From: Paractinoplanes bogorensis
GTDB taxonomy: Bacteria; Actinomycetota; Actinomycetes; Mycobacteriales; Micromonosporaceae
DNA: 64,000 bases
Reading direction: 5' to 3'
Assembly: GCF_018829635.1 (NCBI RefSeq)
Contig: NZ_JAHKKG010000019.1
Coordinates: 1 to 64,000 of the forward strand
The position numbers were made by a program, and so were the translations under genes. Shown one piece after another: positions 49,326-56,910 of the stretch (position 1 is its first letter; each line of letters opens with the position of its first letter). The notes below the pieces were generated by a model. It did not search any database. It worked only from the letters and a program-made list of their open reading frames with translations, and was not told the origin of the DNA.

Positions 49326-49377
49326 TTCTTTCCGGTATTGACGGTCGCCGACCCGATTGACGCATTGTCCGGCCCTG

Positions 49378-49406
49378 AGGTGGGCGCGATAATATCGCGC
49401 CCACCT
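49378..49406 (+). terminator. Strong hairpin terminator of the polyol operon
   Basis: AGGTGGGCGCGATA, one A, then its exact complement TATCGCGCCCACCT: a 14-bp perfect stem 53 bp after the SDR stop. Confidence 0.88.
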
Positions 49407-49517
49407 TCCGCATTTCTATCGCTGGAATCGTGGACCGATAACCGGTCACCGGGAGGCTATTCTCACAACGCCGGGCACATTCCGATGTGGGACAAATCTG
49501 AGCGAGGCGATGAAGCG

Positions 49518-51024
49518 ATGTCCCCTCTCGACTCCTCGTACACGGTCTGGGGCGGCGTTCCCTCGCGTAATCCCGACTTCACCGGCCGCGGCGACTTGCT
49601 CGCGGCCCTCGATGAGAGGCTGCGGACGCAGAGCGTGACGGCCTTGCTGCCGCGGGCTCTGCACGGCATGGGTGGTGTCGGCAAGTCGCAGATCGCCACC
49701 GAGTACGCGTACCGGCATCGCGACGACTACGACATCGTCTGGTGGATCCCGTCGGAGCAACCCGCCCAGATCCTGCGGGCGTTGATCCAGCTCGGGGAGG
49801 CGCTCGAGCCTCGGGCGGGACGATCCGCAGACGCTGAAAGCCGCGCGGTGGCTCGGATTCATCCAGCGCGTCCTCGGCGACTTCGCGGAGGCGCGGGACA
49901 TCAACGCGGAGTCGCTGACCCGGCTGCGAGCGAGTCTCGGGGCGAACCATGAGGAGACGCTCGACGCGATGGCCCTGGTCGCCGGGGACCTGCGCGCTCA
50001 GGGCCGGTTCGAGCAGGCCCGGGACCTGGACCAGGAGACGCTGGACACGTGCCGTGCCACCTTCGGCCCGGACTATCCGGCGACTCTGAGCGCGGCGCAC
50101 GGCCTAGGGGTCAGCCTGCGGCTGACCGGCGAGTTCCGGACGGCCCTGGAGCGGGATTCGGACACATCGCGCCGGCTGGCCGACGTGCTCGGCATCAACC
50201 ACCCGCTCACCCTGTCCACGTTGAACGGCCTCACGCTGGATCTACGTGAGTGCGGGCGTTACATCGAGGCCCACATCGACCAGGAGAAGCTCTACGCTCG
50301 GACCCGGACCGTGCTGGGTGAGGATCACCCGCAAACGCTAATGGCGGCGCGGAATCTCGCAGTGTCCAGGCGGCGGGCCGGTGAGCACGAAACCGCGCGC
50401 AAACTCGCTCATGACACCATGACCCGATTGGCGCAGCGGTTCGGCCCGCTCAATCCGGAGACCGTCGCGGCGGCTCTGAACTACGCGGTCGACCTGCGCG
50501 AGGACGACCGGCTCGAGGAATCACTGGCGCTGGCCGTTCAGGCCCGGGAGAACTACGAACACCTCCTCGGTCCGAACCACCCCTACACGCTGTACGCCCG
50601 CACCAACCTGGGCATCGTGTTGCGGCTGCTCGGGCGGCTGGACGAGGCTCGGCAGCACGACTCGGCGGCCTACGACGGCCTCCGGGCGCGGCTCGGCCCC
50701 GACCACGCGATGACGCTGGCCGCCGCCACCAACCTGGCCGGCGACTACGCGGCCCAGGGAGACCCGGCCACCGCCCACGAGATCGACCGGGATGCGTGGT
50801 CGCGGTCCCGGGTTCGGCTGGGCGAAGACCATCCGTCGACGCTGGCCTGCGCGCTGAATCTCCACTTCGACCTGATTGCCCTGGGCCGGGCGGGCGAGGC
50901 TCGCGAGATCTACCGGGCCGTCATGGACGGCTGTCGCCGGGTGCTCGGTGATCAGCACCCGGCGATCCGGGCGGCCGAGGCGGGGGAGCGGGCCAACGGT
51001 GACGTCGACCCGATGCCGCTCTGA
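49518..51024 (+). pseudogene. fxsT: Decayed FxsT-like NB-ARC/TPR gene
   Basis: The first 98 codons from ATG 49518 read as the start of an FxSxx-system NB-ARC/TPR protein: NPDFTGRGDLLAALDERL, then the P-loop HGMGGVGKSQIATEYAYRH (residues 50-57 are the Walker A) and WWIPSEQPAQILRAL. Near 49800-49812 the match ends. Homology resumes in a different frame with SLGRDDPQTLKAARWLGFIQ and runs as six or more TPR units (EDHPQTL-type) to the stop at 51024. Roughly 300 or more residues of the NTPase domain are missing and the frame is shifted, so this is best read as a deletion pseudogene. It is convergent with the HExxH gene. Confidence 0.8.
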
Positions 51025-51026
51025 CG

Positions 51027-52856
51027 CTAGTCCGGAAGCGCCCGGCCCACCCACTCGGCGAGCTCCCGGGGTGCCGGATTCTCGCCCGGTCCGGCGAGCA
51101 GACGGCGATGAACGGCCAGGACGATCTCCGGTCGTTCATGGAGGGCGCGTGCGGCCCGCCCCGGCTTCAGAGCGAGGCCGAGCCCGGTCCAGGCGTCCAC
51201 GTCTTCGGGATCGTCGATCAGCCGGTCGGCGAATCCCTTGGCCGCGGTGTCGCGCTCGCCGAGGAACAGCGCCAGGTCGGCGTCGGTCAGGCCGGCCGCC
51301 CAGTCCTCGGCGCGGACGTCGTGGAAGTGGTCCGGCGCGATCAACCGGCGCCGCGCGAGGCCGAGCCGGCCCGCGGACCAGTACCGCATCTCCGGATCGG
51401 GCAGGACCGTCGACGGCCGGACAATCGCAGCCGGGGCGCCGTCCGACCAGAGCCGGGCCAGCGCCTCGATGTCCTCCGCCTCGGGCCGGCAGTGCCGGAT
51501 CCGCCACCCGGCCCGATGACCGTCGGCGACCAGCCTGGCCAGGGCGGCCGCCTCGCCGTCGACCTCGTCGTGCTGCCACGAGGCGAGCTCCTCGAGAAGG
51601 CCGTCGATGAACCGGACACCCTGGTCGGTCAGGCCGCCGGCCTGTCGTGCGGTGGCGAGCGCCTCGGTGGTCTGCATCCGGGCGTAGGCGTACTCGAAGT
51701 GGTGGAGCCGGCGGCCGGACCGCTTCCGCTCCCGCCAGAACGCCGTGATTCCGAGGAATGCGTAGACCCCCTGCAGCAGGCCGCCGGGCGGGCGGGGGTC
51801 GTCGCGCCACGGCGCGTACAACGAAGGGTTCCCGGCCGGGGTGGTCAGCGGGACCAGGTGCATGAGGCCGCCGAGCTTGATGTGCATGAACTCGTGGACG
51901 AGCGACACCGCGAGAGTCTCGGCGTCGGGCGGGGGCGAGCACATGACGGCGCCGAACGCCTCGCCGGTGGAGGCGCTGCGAGTGTCCCATCCGTCGCCGA
52001 CCGGCAGCGGGACGAGCGAGGTCACGCCGGCGGCGAGAGATGCCGCGAGCTCGGCGTGGTCGCGGGTGAGAATCGTCCACGCGTCGTCGAGCAGCTCGGT
52101 CCACCGGCCGAGCTCGGCCGGGCTCAAGGGGGCCGGGTCGACCGGGTCGGCCAGGTCCCGCATCGGATCGAGGCGGTCGAGCCAGACGATCAGTTCCGGT
52201 CCGGTGCCGACGGACACCTGCGGCAGCGGCCACCAGCCGTCGGCCTCGCCACCGTCGTCCGGCACGTCGATCCGCTGGTCGCCGTGGCTGAACCAGATGC
52301 GGCCGCCCGCGGTGCCGGCCTCGGCCACGTCGTAGCCCGTGCCGCGGGAGAAATGCGCCATGCCCAGCCGCGGCACCATCACCCGACCGTCGCGCAGCGG
52401 CACGACCGTGGTGAACGGCTGTCGTGCCGCGGCGGCGGCCGCGAGGGCGAGGGTATTGAACTGGCCGAAGTCGGTGTGGAGGGGCGCCGGGCTCGCGGCC
52501 CCGCCGAGCTGCCGGCGCAGGGCGTAGGCGAGCCAGTTGCCGACCTGGGGATGCATGATCAGCGCGGCCACCTCGGCCGGCGCGCTGACCTGTGCATCCT
52601 CCAGGGCGTGCCAGGCCGTGTCCACCGGTGGGAGTGGACCGAACAGGCCGGGATCCTGGGTGACGGCCCGGCGGAACGCGAGGAGCATGACCAGGCGTCT
52701 GTTCCACTGACCGTCCCACAGGGTGCGCACGACAGCGGGTGACCCGTTGCCGTGCGCGAGCTCTGCGAACGCCGATCCCGGCAGCTGCATCCGTGCCCGC
52801 TGTTCGGCGGCCGTCTCGTTCTCTGTCACGGTTTTTCGTAGCTCCTCAAGCGTCAC
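51027..52856 (-). CDS. HExxH-motif peptide-modifying enzyme (putative peptide beta-hydroxylase)
   Basis: A 609-residue protein with the family motif VHEFMHIKLGGLMHLV (H321, E322, H325). The N-terminal FAELAHGNGSPAVVRTLWDGQWNRRLVMLLAF is characteristic of HExxH-domain proteins found with FxSxx-COOH peptide systems, which are described as 2-oxoglutarate-type peptide hydroxylases. Start GTG 52856; ATG 52790 is possible. It lies 32 bp downstream of a 59-codon candidate precursor gene on the same strand and convergent with a decayed fxsT. No radical SAM partner (FxsB) is in the window. I infer modification of the small peptide. Confidence 0.82.
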   Translation of the reverse strand: MTLEELRKTVTENETAAEQRARMQLPGSAFAELAHGNGSPAVVRTLWDGQWNRRLVMLLAFRRAVTQDPGLFGPLPPVDTAWHALEDAQVSAPAEVAALIMHPQVGNWLAYALRRQLGGAASPAPLHTDFGQFNTLALAAAAAARQPFTTVVPLRDGRVMVPRLGMAHFSRGTGYDVAEAGTAGGRIWFSHGDQRIDVPDDGGEADGWWPLPQVSVGTGPELIVWLDRLDPMRDLADPVDPAPLSPAELGRWTELLDDAWTILTRDHAELAASLAAGVTSLVPLPVGDGWDTRSASTGEAFGAVMCSPPPDAETLAVSLVHEFMHIKLGGLMHLVPLTTPAGNPSLYAPWRDDPRPPGGLLQGVYAFLGITAFWRERKRSGRRLHHFEYAYARMQTTEALATARQAGGLTDQGVRFIDGLLEELASWQHDEVDGEAAALARLVADGHRAGWRIRHCRPEAEDIEALARLWSDGAPAAIVRPSTVLPDPEMRYWSAGRLGLARRRLIAPDHFHDVRAEDWAAGLTDADLALFLGERDTAAKGFADRLIDDPEDVDAWTGLGLALKPGRAARALHERPEIVLAVHRRLLAGPGENPAPRELAEWVGRALPD

Positions 52857-52888
52857 GCAAGGGGCGAGCTTCGATGAACGGTTCGCGA

Positions 52889-53068
52889 TCAGTCGGCGCG
52901 TCCGGGCGGGCCGGAGCCGCCCAGGTTGGCGCGCGGCCGCTCAACTTGTCGCAAGACTAGTCTAACGGCTCCGTTCAGATCTTTCCGGGCGTTCGAGCGC
53001 AGTTCGAGCAGTGAGTAGTCGTTCAAATCCGGTAGTTCCGTGGTGATGTCACGCTGAGCGAATGTCAC
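52889..53068 (-). CDS. Candidate RiPP precursor peptide for the HExxH enzyme
   Basis: A 59-codon gene, GTG at 53068 to TGA at 52889, not previously obvious because of its size. The peptide starts MTFAQRDITTELPDLNDYSL, continues with a helical leader (LLELRSNARKDLNGAVRLVL) and ends with RQVERPRANLGGSGPPGRAD. The leader has the LPDL...L..L pattern seen at the start of FxSxx-COOH peptides, but the C-terminus lacks FxSxx and is instead Gly/Pro-rich with Arg, Asn and Asp, plausible hydroxylation sites. GGAAA lies eight bases before the start, and the HExxH gene follows after 32 bp. Recognition is by position and pattern only. Confidence 0.65.
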   Translation of the reverse strand: MTFAQRDITTELPDLNDYSLLELRSNARKDLNGAVRLVLRQVERPRANLGGSGPPGRAD

Positions 53069-53588
53069 GACGTTTCCGTTCTTCTAGAACTCCACAGTCA
53101 TGGGTTAATGGCCGGCACCCGGCGGTGGGCGCGGCACATCCAACCACATCGGACCGGTAAAAGGTTCGAACCAGGAGTGTCGTGTCCCGTCACGGCTGGT
53201 CATGTCCACCCTAGGTGCGTTGTCGATCATACGATGGTTCGCGGCGCGGGTCGGCTGCTCCGCTTCATCTCCCTCTTTCCTGCAATTGTTTCGGGGAAGA
53301 ATGCGTTCTCCGAAAATTGGAAATGGAGAATGAGAAAGTGACGCACGGCAAAATTCGAAAGGACCGCCCCGCCCGGAAGCGGCACTCCGCGCGAGCAGAG
53401 AAGCGTCCGCGGACACGTCACGCGGGCCGGCCACCCCATGACTCCGGTGTCGTTGCCGGAATGGGTGGTCTGAGTGTTCCGAATCGGACTCCGAAGAGGC
53501 CCAACCCGGCGCGCGCCGCTGCCGAACCGGGGGTGCTTGCCGCAAGCTTCAACCACCGATCGCAACCTGCGGACGAAAGGAGCCCTCG
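53069..53588. other. Gene-poor, locally AT-richer intergenic region
   Basis: About 520 bp without a gene I can support. It should hold the promoter of the leftward precursor/HExxH operon and of the rightward gene at 53589. The segment 53250-53360 is clearly richer in A and T than its surroundings. It contains an interrupted inverted repeat, TTCTCC around 53310 and GGAGAA around 53325. Reading frames on both strands here have no credible start or codon pattern. Confidence 0.5.
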
Positions 53589-54695
53589 GTGGGCACTGCC
53601 AACGCTCGTACGGTGCATCTCCAGACCGCCGCGGCACGGCGTGGTCCTCGGAACGTGCAGCCGGGCCTCTACGCCTCCCGCACCGCACGTCCCGGTGACA
53701 GCCAGGCCGACCCGGGCCGCCGGCTTCGGGAGCTCGCCGCGGCCGGGCGACTGGCCGCCGCGGCTGCCGAGGGGAGTCCGGAGCGGGCCTCGCTCACGTC
53801 GGCGGCGTACACCCTGGTCTGGCCGATCGTTTTCTCCCGGGTGACCCGGCGGTTCGAGCGGCAGCGCGGCCACGCCGCGTGTGCGGCCGCGGTGACCAAT
53901 CTGGCCGACGAGTGCCTGGACCGGTTCCACGACGACGTCGAGGCCGTGGTCGAGGATCTGCTCGTGCACGCCGACCGGCCGGTCCGGCACGTCGAGGCCT
54001 GGGTCGCGACCCGGGTCAACGCGGCCACCATCAACGCGCACCGGCGGCGGCGCGGGGAGCGGGGGGCGTTGCAGCGTCCGCGGCTGCCGGGCTGGCTGGC
54101 CGACGGGCTGGGCGGGGACGCGTGGCTGACCGCGCTGGCCGTCGACATCCTGAACTGGGTGGGAGTGAGCGGTACGGCGGGTAGTGAGCTGTGGCCGGTG
54201 GAGGCGTGGGCGCAGGCCCGTGCGGCGTGCACAGGGGACTGGGCCGGCAGCGACCCGGCGGCGGTGCGGCGCGACATCGACCACGTGCTCGCGGTCATGC
54301 GGCGGCGCCCGCACTGGTATGCGTCGTTCGTGGAACGTCCGCTCGGCGCCAAGCAGGCTCCGGTGGTCGCGATGGCGACCGACCCGTACGGGGAACCGGT
54401 CGCCCCGCTGGGCCTGGGCGAACCCGACGACCGGGTCGAGTCGGAGCTGCGCCGGCTGGCCGCGGACGCCGTACGTGCGATCGGCGACCGCATCCACCGG
54501 GGCGAGCCGGCCGAGCCCGCGGTCGTCGAGGTCGTCCGCACGGTGTTCGGTGGCGTCTTCACCGGCACCCTCGACCAGGCCCCGCACGGCGGCGCCGACC
54601 CGCTCGGCGGGGTCACCGGCGCGCTGTCCGACCAGCGACGGGTCAACGCGATCGTGTCGGCCGCGCTGACCATCATCGAGGACAGTGACCGCTGA
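53589..54695 (+). CDS. Protein of unknown function, paralogue of the gene at 55933
   Basis: A 368-residue soluble protein. After about 45 residues it aligns along its length with the protein at 55933-56910: LRELAAAGRL, AYTLVWPIVFSRVTRR, RGHAACAAAVTNL, DDVEAVVEDLL, AWVATRVNAATINAHRRRRG, QRPR and HVLAVMRRRPHWY...VERPLG. The segment with the basic HRRRRG after a helix recalls region 2 of sigma factors, but I cannot assign the family. GTG 53589 is supported by AAAGGAG six bases upstream. It is convergent with the regulator-like gene at 54706. Confidence 0.7.
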   Translation: MGTANARTVHLQTAAARRGPRNVQPGLYASRTARPGDSQADPGRRLRELAAAGRLAAAAAEGSPERASLTSAAYTLVWPIVFSRVTRRFERQRGHAACAAAVTNLADECLDRFHDDVEAVVEDLLVHADRPVRHVEAWVATRVNAATINAHRRRRGERGALQRPRLPGWLADGLGGDAWLTALAVDILNWVGVSGTAGSELWPVEAWAQARAACTGDWAGSDPAAVRRDIDHVLAVMRRRPHWYASFVERPLGAKQAPVVAMATDPYGEPVAPLGLGEPDDRVESELRRLAADAVRAIGDRIHRGEPAEPAVVEVVRTVFGGVFTGTLDQAPHGGADPLGGVTGALSDQRRVNAIVSAALTIIEDSDR

Positions 54696-54705
54696 CGACG
54701 GCGGC

Positions 54706-55677
54706 TCAACGGTGTGACTCCATGCCGCTCTCTGACGGACAGAAACTCCAGGCCAACCCGTACGCGTGACCCTCGCGCAGCCCGTGGAACTCGCGGAACA
54801 CCTCCCCGTGCGCGGTCGGGGTGACCGCCGGGCGTTCCGGCGAGCGGGCGTCCATCTCCATGTAGGGGACCTCGTCGAGCAGCCACACCTCGTCCGGCAT
54901 GCGGTCGGCCGCGAACCGCACCCGTACGGTGCCGTAGTCGCACGGTGCGAGCGGCACGATCGCGTAGTGCGGGCTGGTCGGCTGGTCCTCCGGCAGGGTG
55001 ACGTGCAACCAGAACTCGTGCTTCTCGTCGCGTTCGAGCGGGCGCGGCAGGTCGAGAGTCAGCAGGCGGCTGCGTTCGAGGCGTTCGTTCTTCCGTACGC
55101 CGGCCCCGAACAGGGCGTTGACCACCGGTTCGCCGACGCCGGGCGGGGGTTCGGGGAAGCTGATCCGGATGACGACCTCGCGGAGTTCGCGGGTGGCCAC
55201 GATGGTACGGATCTCGTAGAGCTCCGGGGTCGGGGTGTCCAGCCGGTACAGCGAGCACAGCGACGACACCCGCCACCCCGAGCCGGCGGTGTCGACGTCG
55301 ATGGCGCGATCGTCCTCCCCGGCCGCCGCGGCGAGGGCGTTCAGGGCCTGGTCGGCCAGTCTCCGGGCGGTACGGGTGGAGACGCGCTGCAGCCGGGCCA
55401 GTTCGCCGATGCGGGCCCCGAGCGTCTGCAGCCCGAATTCCCGGCCGACCGCGAACGACACCAGGACGGCCTGGCCGTGATCCTTGGTCAGCGTGCCGGC
55501 CAGTTCGGTCAGCCAGGCCTGCACGACCGTCCGTGTCTTGGCGTCGTTCTCCCGTTTGAGCAGCCCGCACAGCGTCCGGATCCGGGGGCCGAGGTAGTCG
55601 TGCAGATTGCCGCGCTGGACGCCCTCACGGCTGCGGAGCGTCTTGAGTTCCTGAAAGAAGGCGGAGTCGGGGGCCAT
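54706..55677 (-). CDS. Regulator-like protein of unknown family
   Basis: A 323-residue protein. The N-terminal 120 residues are helical, with LGPRIRTLCGLLKRENDAKTR and an HTH-like LARLQRVSTRTARRLADQALNAL; the C-terminal half is beta-rich (VVIRISFPEPPPGVGEP, FWLHVTLPEDQ, YGTVRVRFAADRMPDEVW). AGGAG lies five bases before the ATG. It sits between two paralogous genes and is divergent from the second. I do not recognise the family; a DNA-binding regulator of its neighbours is a guess. Confidence 0.6.
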   Translation of the reverse strand: MAPDSAFFQELKTLRSREGVQRGNLHDYLGPRIRTLCGLLKRENDAKTRTVVQAWLTELAGTLTKDHGQAVLVSFAVGREFGLQTLGARIGELARLQRVSTRTARRLADQALNALAAAAGEDDRAIDVDTAGSGWRVSSLCSLYRLDTPTPELYEIRTIVATRELREVVIRISFPEPPPGVGEPVVNALFGAGVRKNERLERSRLLTLDLPRPLERDEKHEFWLHVTLPEDQPTSPHYAIVPLAPCDYGTVRVRFAADRMPDEVWLLDEVPYMEMDARSPERPAVTPTAHGEVFREFHGLREGHAYGLAWSFCPSESGMESHR

Positions 55678-55693
55678 GGAACTCCTAGCAGTA

Positions 55694-55717
55694 CTGTCTG
55701 TCGTCTACTAAAGACAG
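55694..55717. promoter_or_regulatory. Inverted repeat in a divergent promoter
   Basis: CTGTCT at 55694-55699 and AGACAG at 55712-55717 form an inverted repeat with a 12-bp spacer, 17 bp upstream of the regulator-like gene start on the minus strand. It could be an operator in the 255-bp region shared with the paralogue at 55933. Confidence 0.45.
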
Positions 55718-55932
55718 AACGTAGTGCACGTTGCTCTCTGTGGCGACCGTCCTGTAGGGAACCGGTCAGCGTGAGCTACCGAGGGTGACGGAATTTGCCA
55801 GACCGCTGGCCACAAAAAGGCCAGCGAAGGGCCTCGATCCGGGTAAATGCCTGGCCAGACTGGCAGGATGATCTGGGGGGCTACGATCACTCTGCGTCAC
55901 TTTGTGATGACAGTGCCACTGGAGTGCCGGTG

Positions 55933-56910
55933 GTGACAACGAGCAACGACGCTCGCTTGCGCGAGCTGGCCGGACGAGGACACCTCGGACGGCTCAACGA
56001 GGCCGAGCGCGAAAGGTTGCGCCCGGCCGCCTACGAACTGGCGTACCGCATCGTCTACGACGTGGTGATCCGCCGCGTCGCCCGGGGCCGGGGCCATCAC
56101 GCCTGCGCCGCCGGGCTGCACCGGATGCGGGAGTGCTGCCTCGACGGCTATTACGACGATCTCGAGGCGACCGTCGACCGGCTGCTCACCAGCACCGAGC
56201 GGATCGGTGACCTGGAGGCGTGGCTGGCCAAGCGGGCCAAGGGCGCGGCCATCGACGCCTACCGCCGCCGCCGGGGCGCGACCGGTGCCCCGCAACGCCC
56301 GCGGATGACCAAGGCGCTGTCGCGAGGGCTGGGGCACGATCCGTGGCTGTGCGACCTCGCGCTCAAGATCCTGGACTGGGTCGGCATCCCGGCCGGGCTC
56401 GGCGCCACGGTGTGGCCGGTGGACAGCTGGGCCGCCGACCGGGCCGCCCGCACCGGCGACCATCACGGCAGCACGCCGGCGCGGGTGGTGGCCGACGTGG
56501 ACCGGGTGCTCGGCGTGATGCGCCGGCGGCCGGACTGGTTCCACCGGCACGTCGAACGGCCGCTCGGCCGCAAGACGGCACCGGTCGGCGGGTGCCCCGG
56601 CGAGGGGCCGGGCGATCCGCGGCCGCTGCTGGCCGATCCGGGCGACGCCGACGAGGCGCGGGTGCGGGAACTGGCCGCGGCCGCCGTCGAGGCGATCCGG
56701 GCCGGGCTGGGGCGGGGCGAGGACGCCGCAGCCGCGGTGGAGACGGTTCTCTCCGAGTTGTTCCTGGGCGGCACCGGAGCCGACCAGATCGGCCGGATGC
56801 CGGGCCACGGAGAGGTCACGGAGCGGGTGTCAGTGCTGCTCGGTGACCGCGTCGCCTTCGCCGCCCTGGTCCAGCGGATCCTGCCGATCGTGGACGGGTC
56901 CGCCGGCTAG
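55933..56910 (+). CDS. Protein of unknown function, paralogue of the gene at 53589
   Basis: A 325-residue protein similar along its length to the 53589 product: LRELAGRGHLGRL, AYELAYRIVYDVVIRRV, GHHACAAGLHRM, YDDLEATVDRLL, AWLAKRAKGAAIDAYRRRRG, QRPRMTKAL and RVLGVMRRRPDWF...VERPLGRKTAPV. GTG 55933 is preferred because GGAG lies eight bases upstream; GTG 55924 or a start at 55795 would lengthen it. The shared RRRRG segment resembles sigma region 2 but there is no region 4. The 3' end overlaps a small gene on the other strand. Confidence 0.7.
   Translation: MTTSNDARLRELAGRGHLGRLNEAERERLRPAAYELAYRIVYDVVIRRVARGRGHHACAAGLHRMRECCLDGYYDDLEATVDRLLTSTERIGDLEAWLAKRAKGAAIDAYRRRRGATGAPQRPRMTKALSRGLGHDPWLCDLALKILDWVGIPAGLGATVWPVDSWAADRAARTGDHHGSTPARVVADVDRVLGVMRRRPDWFHRHVERPLGRKTAPVGGCPGEGPGDPRPLLADPGDADEARVRELAAAAVEAIRAGLGRGEDAAAAVETVLSELFLGGTGADQIGRMPGHGEVTERVSVLLGDRVAFAALVQRILPIVDGSAG

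What the first reader, a model, noticed from the sequence alone, without database searches (positions are those of the whole stretch)
52889..53068. Unannotated 59-residue candidate precursor peptide next to an HExxH hydroxylase
Seen: a short gene with Shine-Dalgarno-like GGAAA, 32 bp upstream of the HExxH-domain gene on the same strand; leader with LPDL...LLEL pattern and a core-like end PRANLGGSGPPGRAD. Known: HExxH-domain proteins accompany FxSxx-COOH peptides. This peptide lacks FxSxx, so the core differs from the described class. Inference: a two-gene ribosomal-peptide system in which residues such as Asn, Asp or Pro near the C-terminus are hydroxylated.
Basis: partly seen in the sequence, partly recalled or inferred. 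Interest (0 to 1): 0.8.

Follow-up and report, generated by a model that had tools for sequence, protein, structure and literature searches.

The report
RxD-type precursor peptide beside HExxH oxygenase
The small gene is a real precursor peptide whose last residues are strongly conserved in related soil bacteria, and it is paired with an iron enzyme that probably oxidises those residues as part of an immune-like gene system.

Summary
Observation confirmed: the 59-codon ORF at 52889-53068(-) is a real gene. Homologues share a C-terminus PRxN[LI]G..GPPGR[AV]D-stop behind a drifting leader (11 invariant columns in 19 of 19). Its neighbour is an aKG-HExxH-type enzyme (TIGR04267, 167.5 bits).

Of 44 precursor places in the genus (window included), 40 have a HExxH gene and 38 an NB-ARC-TPR match covering at least 71% of the query. 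The leader is shared with other core types, including FxSxx. A leader-only profile finds 71 ORFs in 64 of 80 named HExxH loci; 54 end R-x-[D/E], against 48 of 10,551 control frames. This fits the 'RxD type' peptides named by Kaur et al. 2020, so the type is not new. It is the peptide arm of an NB-ARC-TPR (often VMAP) conflict system, not a lone two-gene cassette. In the window the NB-ARC-TPR partner is broken and no VMAP gene was found.

Best mechanism (inferred, not shown): leader-guided oxidation next to the C-terminal R-x-D. Boldest version: Gly hydroxylation with amidating cleavage, as PosC does at ARMD.

The parts
52889..53068 (-). Precursor peptide ORF, 59 residues plus stop (RxD type, GPPGRAD ending)
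52937..53068 (-). Leader, residues 1-44; related to leaders of FxSxx-COOH and other RxD-type precursors
   Evidence: leader-only profile finds other core types; weak, leader-side TIGR04268 matches in relatives, none in the window peptide
52892..52936 (-). Conserved C-terminal segment PRANLGGSGPPGRAD, residues 45-59
   Evidence: P45 R46 N48 G53 P54 P55 G56 R57 D59 invariant in 19 of 19; pN 0.088-0.153 against pS 0.55-0.57 in the last 7 codons
52892..52903 (-). GRAD, residues 56-59: R-x-D end with Gly immediately before Arg; proposed oxidation/cleavage site (inferred)
   Evidence: analogy to ARMD of PosA and Pro before R(V/T)DN of PesA
51027..52829 (-). aKG-HExxH-type peptide oxygenase (listed ORF runs to 52856; start at 52829 preferred)
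   Evidence: TIGR04267 167.5 bits; model pLDDT 91.5; best structural match SjiH 22ob, TM 0.89 by target
51882..51896 (-). HEFMH, HExxH motif
49533..49850 (+). Remnant of the NB-ARC part of the partner STAND gene (matches residues 429-534 of the 1256-aa relative)
   Evidence: weak NB-ARC match
49819..51024 (+). Remnant of the TPR part of the partner STAND gene (matches residues 856-1256)
   Evidence: full proteins of relatives match NF040586 FxSxx_TPR

Best explanation
The ORF encodes an RxD-type ribosomal precursor peptide, and the gene after it is its maturation enzyme, an aKG-dependent HExxH oxygenase. Shown by sequence: a conserved gene, frequent pairing, a shared leader with exchangeable cores, core type following enzyme clade, and association with NB-ARC-TPR (STAND) genes. 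Inferred: the leader docks on the enzyme, the C-terminal R-x-D presents the residues just before Arg to the iron, and these (Gly56, else Pro54/55) are oxidised. With Gly there, alpha-hydroxylation can lead to backbone cleavage and a C-terminal amide (...GPP-NH2), as reported for PosC. Inferred: the product stays in the cell and acts as ligand or licence for the TPR sensor of the NB-ARC protein that controls a PNP-nucleosidase/VMAP effector. In this window the NB-ARC-TPR gene is broken, so the pair is an orphan or serves the two other systems of the same genome that have full NB-ARC-TPR genes (L036, L037).
For: Conservation. Pairing: all 44 places that the A1 profile listed in 67 genomes of the genus were examined; 40 have HExxH in the stretch, and 38 have an NB-ARC-TPR match over at least 71% of the query, the window a partial one (61%), 5 none. 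With 15 of 38 places outside the genus (fetched by choice) the figures are 55 of 59 and 53 of 59. Leader-only profile, trained without the core: 71 ORFs in 64 of 80 HExxH loci, 54 ending R-x-[DE], against 48 of 10,551 other frames and 14 of 1,371 long frames. Leaving out ORFs identical to training members and the GPPGR type, 23 of 39 still end so. Core label on the enzyme tree: 14 changes, shuffled mean 47.2, 0 of 200 as low; GPPGR label 5 against 26.3, 0 of 500 as low (quick tree, near-copies present). Fold: SjiH 22ob TM 0.89, ChlH 8s5f TM 0.71 by target. R351, D353, R355 and P356 are shared with both (roles not tested). Three published systems place the reaction at the residue before an Arg: Ala of ARMD (PosC/PflC), Pro before R(V/T)DN (PesO), and, inferred from biphenomycin C, oTyr before Arg-Ser (BipH).
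Against: No biochemical data. PosC and PflC also hydroxylate several Gln upstream, and in PosA the Arg, Met and Asp of ARMD are each dispensable. The ChlH sites (His and Asp in a cyclophane peptide) were not checked for a following Arg. The residue before Arg varies: among 68 distinct R-x-[DE] tails G 40, Q 16, K 5, S 3, E 3, T 1, so one reaction cannot hold for all. PosA-A91G was cleaved only in part. 17 of 71 leader-only ORFs, and 16 of the 39 in the stricter set, do not end R-x-[DE]. L055 carries a precursor without HExxH in 20 kb; L124 has precursor and HExxH but no NB-ARC-TPR. ChlH has His where this family and SjiH have Gln. The PNP and STAND roles are from homology only.
Confidence: 0.68

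Rival explanations
1. The enzyme beta-hydroxylates the invariant Asn48 (PRxN), with R-x-D only as a docking end.
For: Asn48 is invariant in 19 of 19, and an Asn is also present in the SGYNPQR type. PosC hydroxylates Asn in a PosA variant.
Against: Asn keeps a fixed distance to the leader but a variable linker to the R-x-D block, which suits a recognition element. Some RxD types (for example SGSQAKRVD) show no Asn in the last nine residues. The 44 of 44 is partly circular, because PRxN was one of the two selection patterns.
Confidence: 0.25
2. The enzyme is a zincin peptidase that hydrolyses the precursor and frees a C-terminal peptide, as PMC7159879 states.
For: HExxH motif; PMC7159879 section 24. 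PflC hydrolyses truncated peptides without the leader.
Against: NCBIfam describes TIGR04267 as an aKG-HExxH-type peptide beta-hydroxylase, and the solved ChlH is titled an aKG-dependent oxygenase (the SjiH title names no activity). PflC oxidises when the leader is present.
Confidence: 0.12
3. In this genome the pair is a decaying leftover of a system that lost its effector and no longer acts.
For: No VMAP match in the window; the NB-ARC-TPR gene is truncated and its two matched parts lie in different frames.
Against: Peptide and enzyme are intact with the invariant residues of A1 and A2; the window enzyme's end branch equals that of its nearest relative, 0.25 each; pN is low in the core against L040.
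Confidence: 0.2

Closest known systems
RxD-motif-type peptide-processing systems of VMAP-ternary conflict systems (Kaur et al. 2020, PMC7159879)
   Same: Small variable precursor, conserved R-x-D C-terminus, zincin-type HExxH gene, AP-ATPase with TPRs fused to the vWA-side protein, VMAP protein in relatives.
   Different: That paper calls the enzyme a peptidase; here it fits the aKG oxygenase family. A MoxR-type gene was found in only 7 of 36 sequences of this core type. No VMAP gene and no intact AP-ATPase-TPR were found in the window. Its sequence list (source data) was not available to me.
FxSxx-COOH cyclophane RiPPs (TIGR04268; FxsB/FxsBH)
   Same: Related leader, HExxH enzyme, FxSxx_TPR protein family.
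   Different: No FxSxx end, no aromatic residue in the window's core, no radical SAM gene among the adjacent ORFs scanned.
PosA/PosC and PflA/PflC (PMC12636437)
   Same: aKG-HExxH enzyme and a C-terminal xRxD (ARMD).
   Different: The paper reports an NHLP-type leader (PflA), a Gln string and an MNIO-nitroreductase; here one tailoring enzyme seen, Gly before Arg, and a STAND partner.
Nitrilobacillins, PesA/PesO (PMC13060819)
   Same: HExxH enzyme acts on the residue before R(V/T)DN.
   Different: Further MNIO and nitrile-forming enzymes; Pro instead of Gly before Arg.

Membership tests
aKG-HExxH peptide oxygenase (TIGR04267) | Family profile over cut-off | tested here: met
   167.5 bits, cut-off 40
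aKG-HExxH peptide oxygenase (TIGR04267) | HExxH motif and fold of solved members | tested here: met
   HEFMH; 22ob TM 0.89 and 8s5f TM 0.71 by target length
aKG-HExxH peptide oxygenase (TIGR04267) | Fe(II)/aKG-dependent peptide oxidation | not testable with these tools
   needs co-expression and mass spectrometry
FxSxx-COOH precursor (TIGR04268) | C-terminal FxSxx | tested here: not met
   ends GPPGRAD
FxSxx-COOH precursor (TIGR04268) | Profile score over 28 bits | tested here: not met
   window: no match; 3 of 19 members weak, best E 0.009; L158 14.4 bits over residues 13-40
FxSxx-COOH precursor (TIGR04268) | Neighbouring FxsB radical SAM gene | tested here: not met
   none in the adjacent ORFs scanned, 49338-56910; the rest of the window was not scanned
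RxD-type precursor (PMC7159879) | C-terminal R-x-D | tested here: met
   R57-A58-D59
RxD-type precursor (PMC7159879) | Adjacent zincin (HExxH) gene | tested here: met
RxD-type precursor (PMC7159879) | VMAP system with AP-ATPase-TPR at the locus | tested here: inconclusive
   window: AP-ATPase-TPR broken, no VMAP match. Relatives: VMAP-M0, VMAP-C, SAV_2336 N-terminus, NB-ARC and TPR
RxD-type precursor (PMC7159879) | Sequence listed in the paper's source data | not testable with these tools

The most novel reading that the evidence does not exclude
A single HExxH oxygenase makes C-terminally amidated peptides inside actinobacterial cells by oxidising the Gly before R[A/V]D (a one-enzyme analogue of animal peptide-hormone amidation). 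The amidated ...GPP-NH2 peptide is then the endogenous ligand that sets or releases an NB-ARC-TPR sensor controlling a PNP-nucleosidase effector. The R-x-D end would be a general aiming signal for HExxH oxygenases, found again in Pseudomonas (ARMD) and Peribacillus (R[V/T]DN) precursors.
Probability: 0.18. Interest if true: 0.85.

Novelty: new variant of a known kind. Interest (0 to 1): 0.58.

Why it matters
It gives the R-x-D class a concrete, single-enzyme, easily expressed test case. Do HExxH oxygenases read a C-terminal R-x-D and act on the residue before it? Does a modified self-peptide regulate bacterial NLR-like (STAND) proteins? It also shows that such precursors can be found by leader homology while their cores change with the enzyme clade.

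Tried and rejected
Single-sequence scan of genome contigs with the window enzyme: 20 pattern stretches, no relative. The alignment query gave 199 relatives, of which the tool kept the best 80. The 59-aa query in 60 relatives at E up to 1 listed many weak matches; for A1 only fetched loci with tblastn E under 1e-4 were used. Outside the genus I fetched 10 of 13 places and 5 of 25, chosen by hand, so counts that include them are not an unbiased sample. PADLOC gave only matches to an 'effector, PN-superfamily' and a candidate model for the PNP part, and a weak IetA match for the MoxR-type ATPase. Plasmid records: the L238 precursor ends ENSWTA, not R-x-D, and no gene is listed there in the PLSDB table. 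L240 was not used. One search's pN for 31 motif-selected sequences was replaced. A chance ORF was rejected.

Literature: ten searches showed no experimental study of RxD-type peptides in the held library; the only paper that I know to use RxD in this sense was PMC7159879. Its other eLife hit, PMC8195603, uses 'RxD motif' for a Death-domain helix (passages); the remaining six were seen as listing only. The 2024 ChlBH paper appears only as a reference and was not read. Seen: PMC7159879 passages and section 24; PMC12636437 abstract and passages; PMC13060819 abstract, passages and section 6; PMC12707348 and PMC12257519 passages; PMC8195603 passages; all others listing only.

Full report
Observation. 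The 59-codon ORF 52889-53068(-) exists as described, with GTG start, GGAAA four bases upstream and TGA stop. The enzyme gene after it carries HEFMH and is over the cut-off of TIGR04267. The stated 32-bp gap becomes 59 bp if the enzyme starts at GTG 52829 behind GAGGAG. That is likelier, because residues 1-19 of the long form are modelled with pLDDT under 50.

It is a real gene. A search of 60 relatives with the peptide and inspection of 20 fetched loci gave 18 homologues with tblastn E under 1e-4. The two fetched loci without one, L038 and L039, are further HExxH genes of the window's genome, taken because. In the 19-sequence alignment the leader drifts, while T10, Q41, P45, R46, N48, G53, P54, P55, G56, R57 and D59 are invariant in 19 of 19. 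Over the last seven codons, pooled over pairs and picked by leader alone, pS is 0.565 and pN 0.153 for all 36 sequences of this core type, or 0.554 and 0.088 without the two truncated ones. One search had given pN 0.038, but for 31 of 34 sequences picked by the motif itself. Window against L040: leader pN 0.28, core pN 0.05. A profile of A1 matched 26 of 67 genomes of the genus. It matched 14 of 397 in the order, where three genomes (own, G378, G271) gave matches running through the GPPG end, and 24 of 394 in the class at E up to 0.01. Of the 38 places outside the genus in those two calls, 30 end at model position 52 or before.

It goes with the enzyme. All 44 places were examined, the window being one; 40 have a HExxH gene in the same stretch. 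The four without are L055, L131, L132 and L137; L131 and L137 are short contigs, and the L131 and L132 peptides stop after PRINL. The 15 places that I chose outside the genus all have one, which makes 55 of 59. The peptide lies directly before the enzyme or some kilobases from it. The alignment query in named genomes gave 80 loci. A profile trained on several cores finds 88 precursor ORFs in 78 of 80, and 60 of 88 end R-x-[DE], against 48 of 10,551 other frames of 40-200 aa and 14 of 1,371 long frames. With the leader alone: 71 ORFs in 64 of 80 loci, 54 of 71 ending R-x-[DE]. Without the 13 identical to training members: 41 of 58. Without the GPPGR type as well: 23 of 39. The cores differ by clade: GPPGR[AV]D, SGYNPQR[VIL]D, PPKRFD, NPAERFD, AKRVD, and FxSxx-like ends in L144, L148, L149, L153 and L155. 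On the enzyme tree (91 rows, 89 labelled) the core label needs 14 changes against a shuffled mean of 47.2, with 0 of 200 shuffles as low. The labels are mine, the tree is a quick one, and near-copies contribute to such clustering.

Neighbourhood. An NB-ARC-TPR match over at least 71% of the query lies in 38 of the 44 genus places and in 53 of all 59; the window has a partial one (61%), and L055, L124, L131, L132 and L137 have none. Representative proteins match VMAP-M0, VMAP-C, PNP_UDP_1, NB-ARC, DUF7779, TPR and EAD2 in Pfam, and NF040586 and NF041121 in NCBIfam. By tblastn with the L042 and L037 proteins, 28 of the 36 sequences of this core type (window included) have the PNP-type part and 7 have the MoxR-type ATPase. 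The 22 loci L135, L136 and L138-L157, which bear other cores, gave no PNP match at E up to 1e-6; remote PNP domains there were not sought. The few flanking genes scanned are unrelated (methionine synthase, a DNA polymerase A, GGDEF/EAL and others). I saw no transporter or further peptidase among them, which is weak support for an intracellular product.

The window copy is incomplete. Against L040, only residues 429-534 and 856-1256 of the 1256-aa NB-ARC-TPR protein are matched, in different frames around 49800, and neither VMAP query matched the window. Peptide and enzyme remain intact, and the window enzyme's end branch equals that of L158 (0.25 each). The same genome holds two further precursor-HExxH loci with full NB-ARC-TPR genes, L036 and L037, and two HExxH genes without a detected precursor, L038 and L039.

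Mechanism. The enzyme's model (pLDDT 91.5) matches SjiH (22ob) and ChlH (8s5f); the ChlH title calls it an aKG-dependent oxygenase, the SjiH title names no activity. In three published systems the reaction falls at the residue directly before an Arg. PosC and PflC act at Ala of ARMD, giving a C-terminal amide, with Gly partly accepted and larger residues beta-hydroxylated; they also hydroxylate upstream Gln. PesO acts at Pro before R(V/T)DN. BipH acts at the C-terminal oTyr, which Arg-Ser follows in biphenomycin C (the precursor sequence itself was not seen). The ChlH sites were not checked. The comparison is mine; I did not see it stated in the passages I read. In this core type 31 of 36 sequences end GR[AVI]D, the rest being RINL 2 (truncated), GHSD, QRID and TRAD. 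The PRxN block sits at a fixed distance from the leader (19 of 19), but in 47 tails that fit my pattern, of 118 distinct ones, 4-8 residues separate it from the R-x-D block. I therefore favour oxidation at Gly56 or Pro54/55 over Asn48, without certainty. Against it: single Ala substitutions of R, M or D in PosA were tolerated, and the residue before Arg differs in other RxD types.

What it works like and what it is. It works like a leader-guided HExxH RiPP pair. It meets the visible criteria of the RxD type of PMC7159879 (R-x-D end, zincin neighbour) and fails those of FxSxx-COOH (end, profile, no radical SAM gene in the scanned neighbours). The VMAP criterion holds in relatives but not in the window. 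Novelty: the type was named in 2020 from sequence.

Noticed in passing
window 53655-54695(+) and 56017-56910(+): Two paralogous proteins (45% identity) without Pfam match, either side of a minus-strand gene with a weak MerR-type match; the second has a sub-threshold sigma-70 match.
   Followed up: partly
L055 (G010:C88): Precursor of the GPPGRAD type with no HExxH gene and no NB-ARC-TPR match in 20 kb.
   Followed up: partly
L131 and L132: Precursor-like frames that stop right after PRINL, lacking the GPPGRxD block, with no HExxH in the stretch.
   Followed up: partly
L208, L209, L212, L213, L215, L217, L228, L235, L236, L237 (Streptomyces): Two divergent precursor-HExxH pairs side by side with different cores: 6 of 10 plus-strand precursors end R-F-D, the minus-strand ones carry PQR[DE] near the end.
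   Followed up: partly
window enzyme residue Q362: This family and SjiH have Gln after GLL/GLF where ChlH has His; it may bear on the metal site.
   Followed up: no
L238 6980-8866 (NZ_CP109170.1): PLSDB lists a predicted small multidrug resistance pump (qacH) over the whole HExxH gene, evidently a wrong annotation.
   Followed up: no
L208 5618-5812: This precursor gives a weak match (E 0.036) to NF038399, an Os1348-family NHLP model; may be chance.
   Followed up: no
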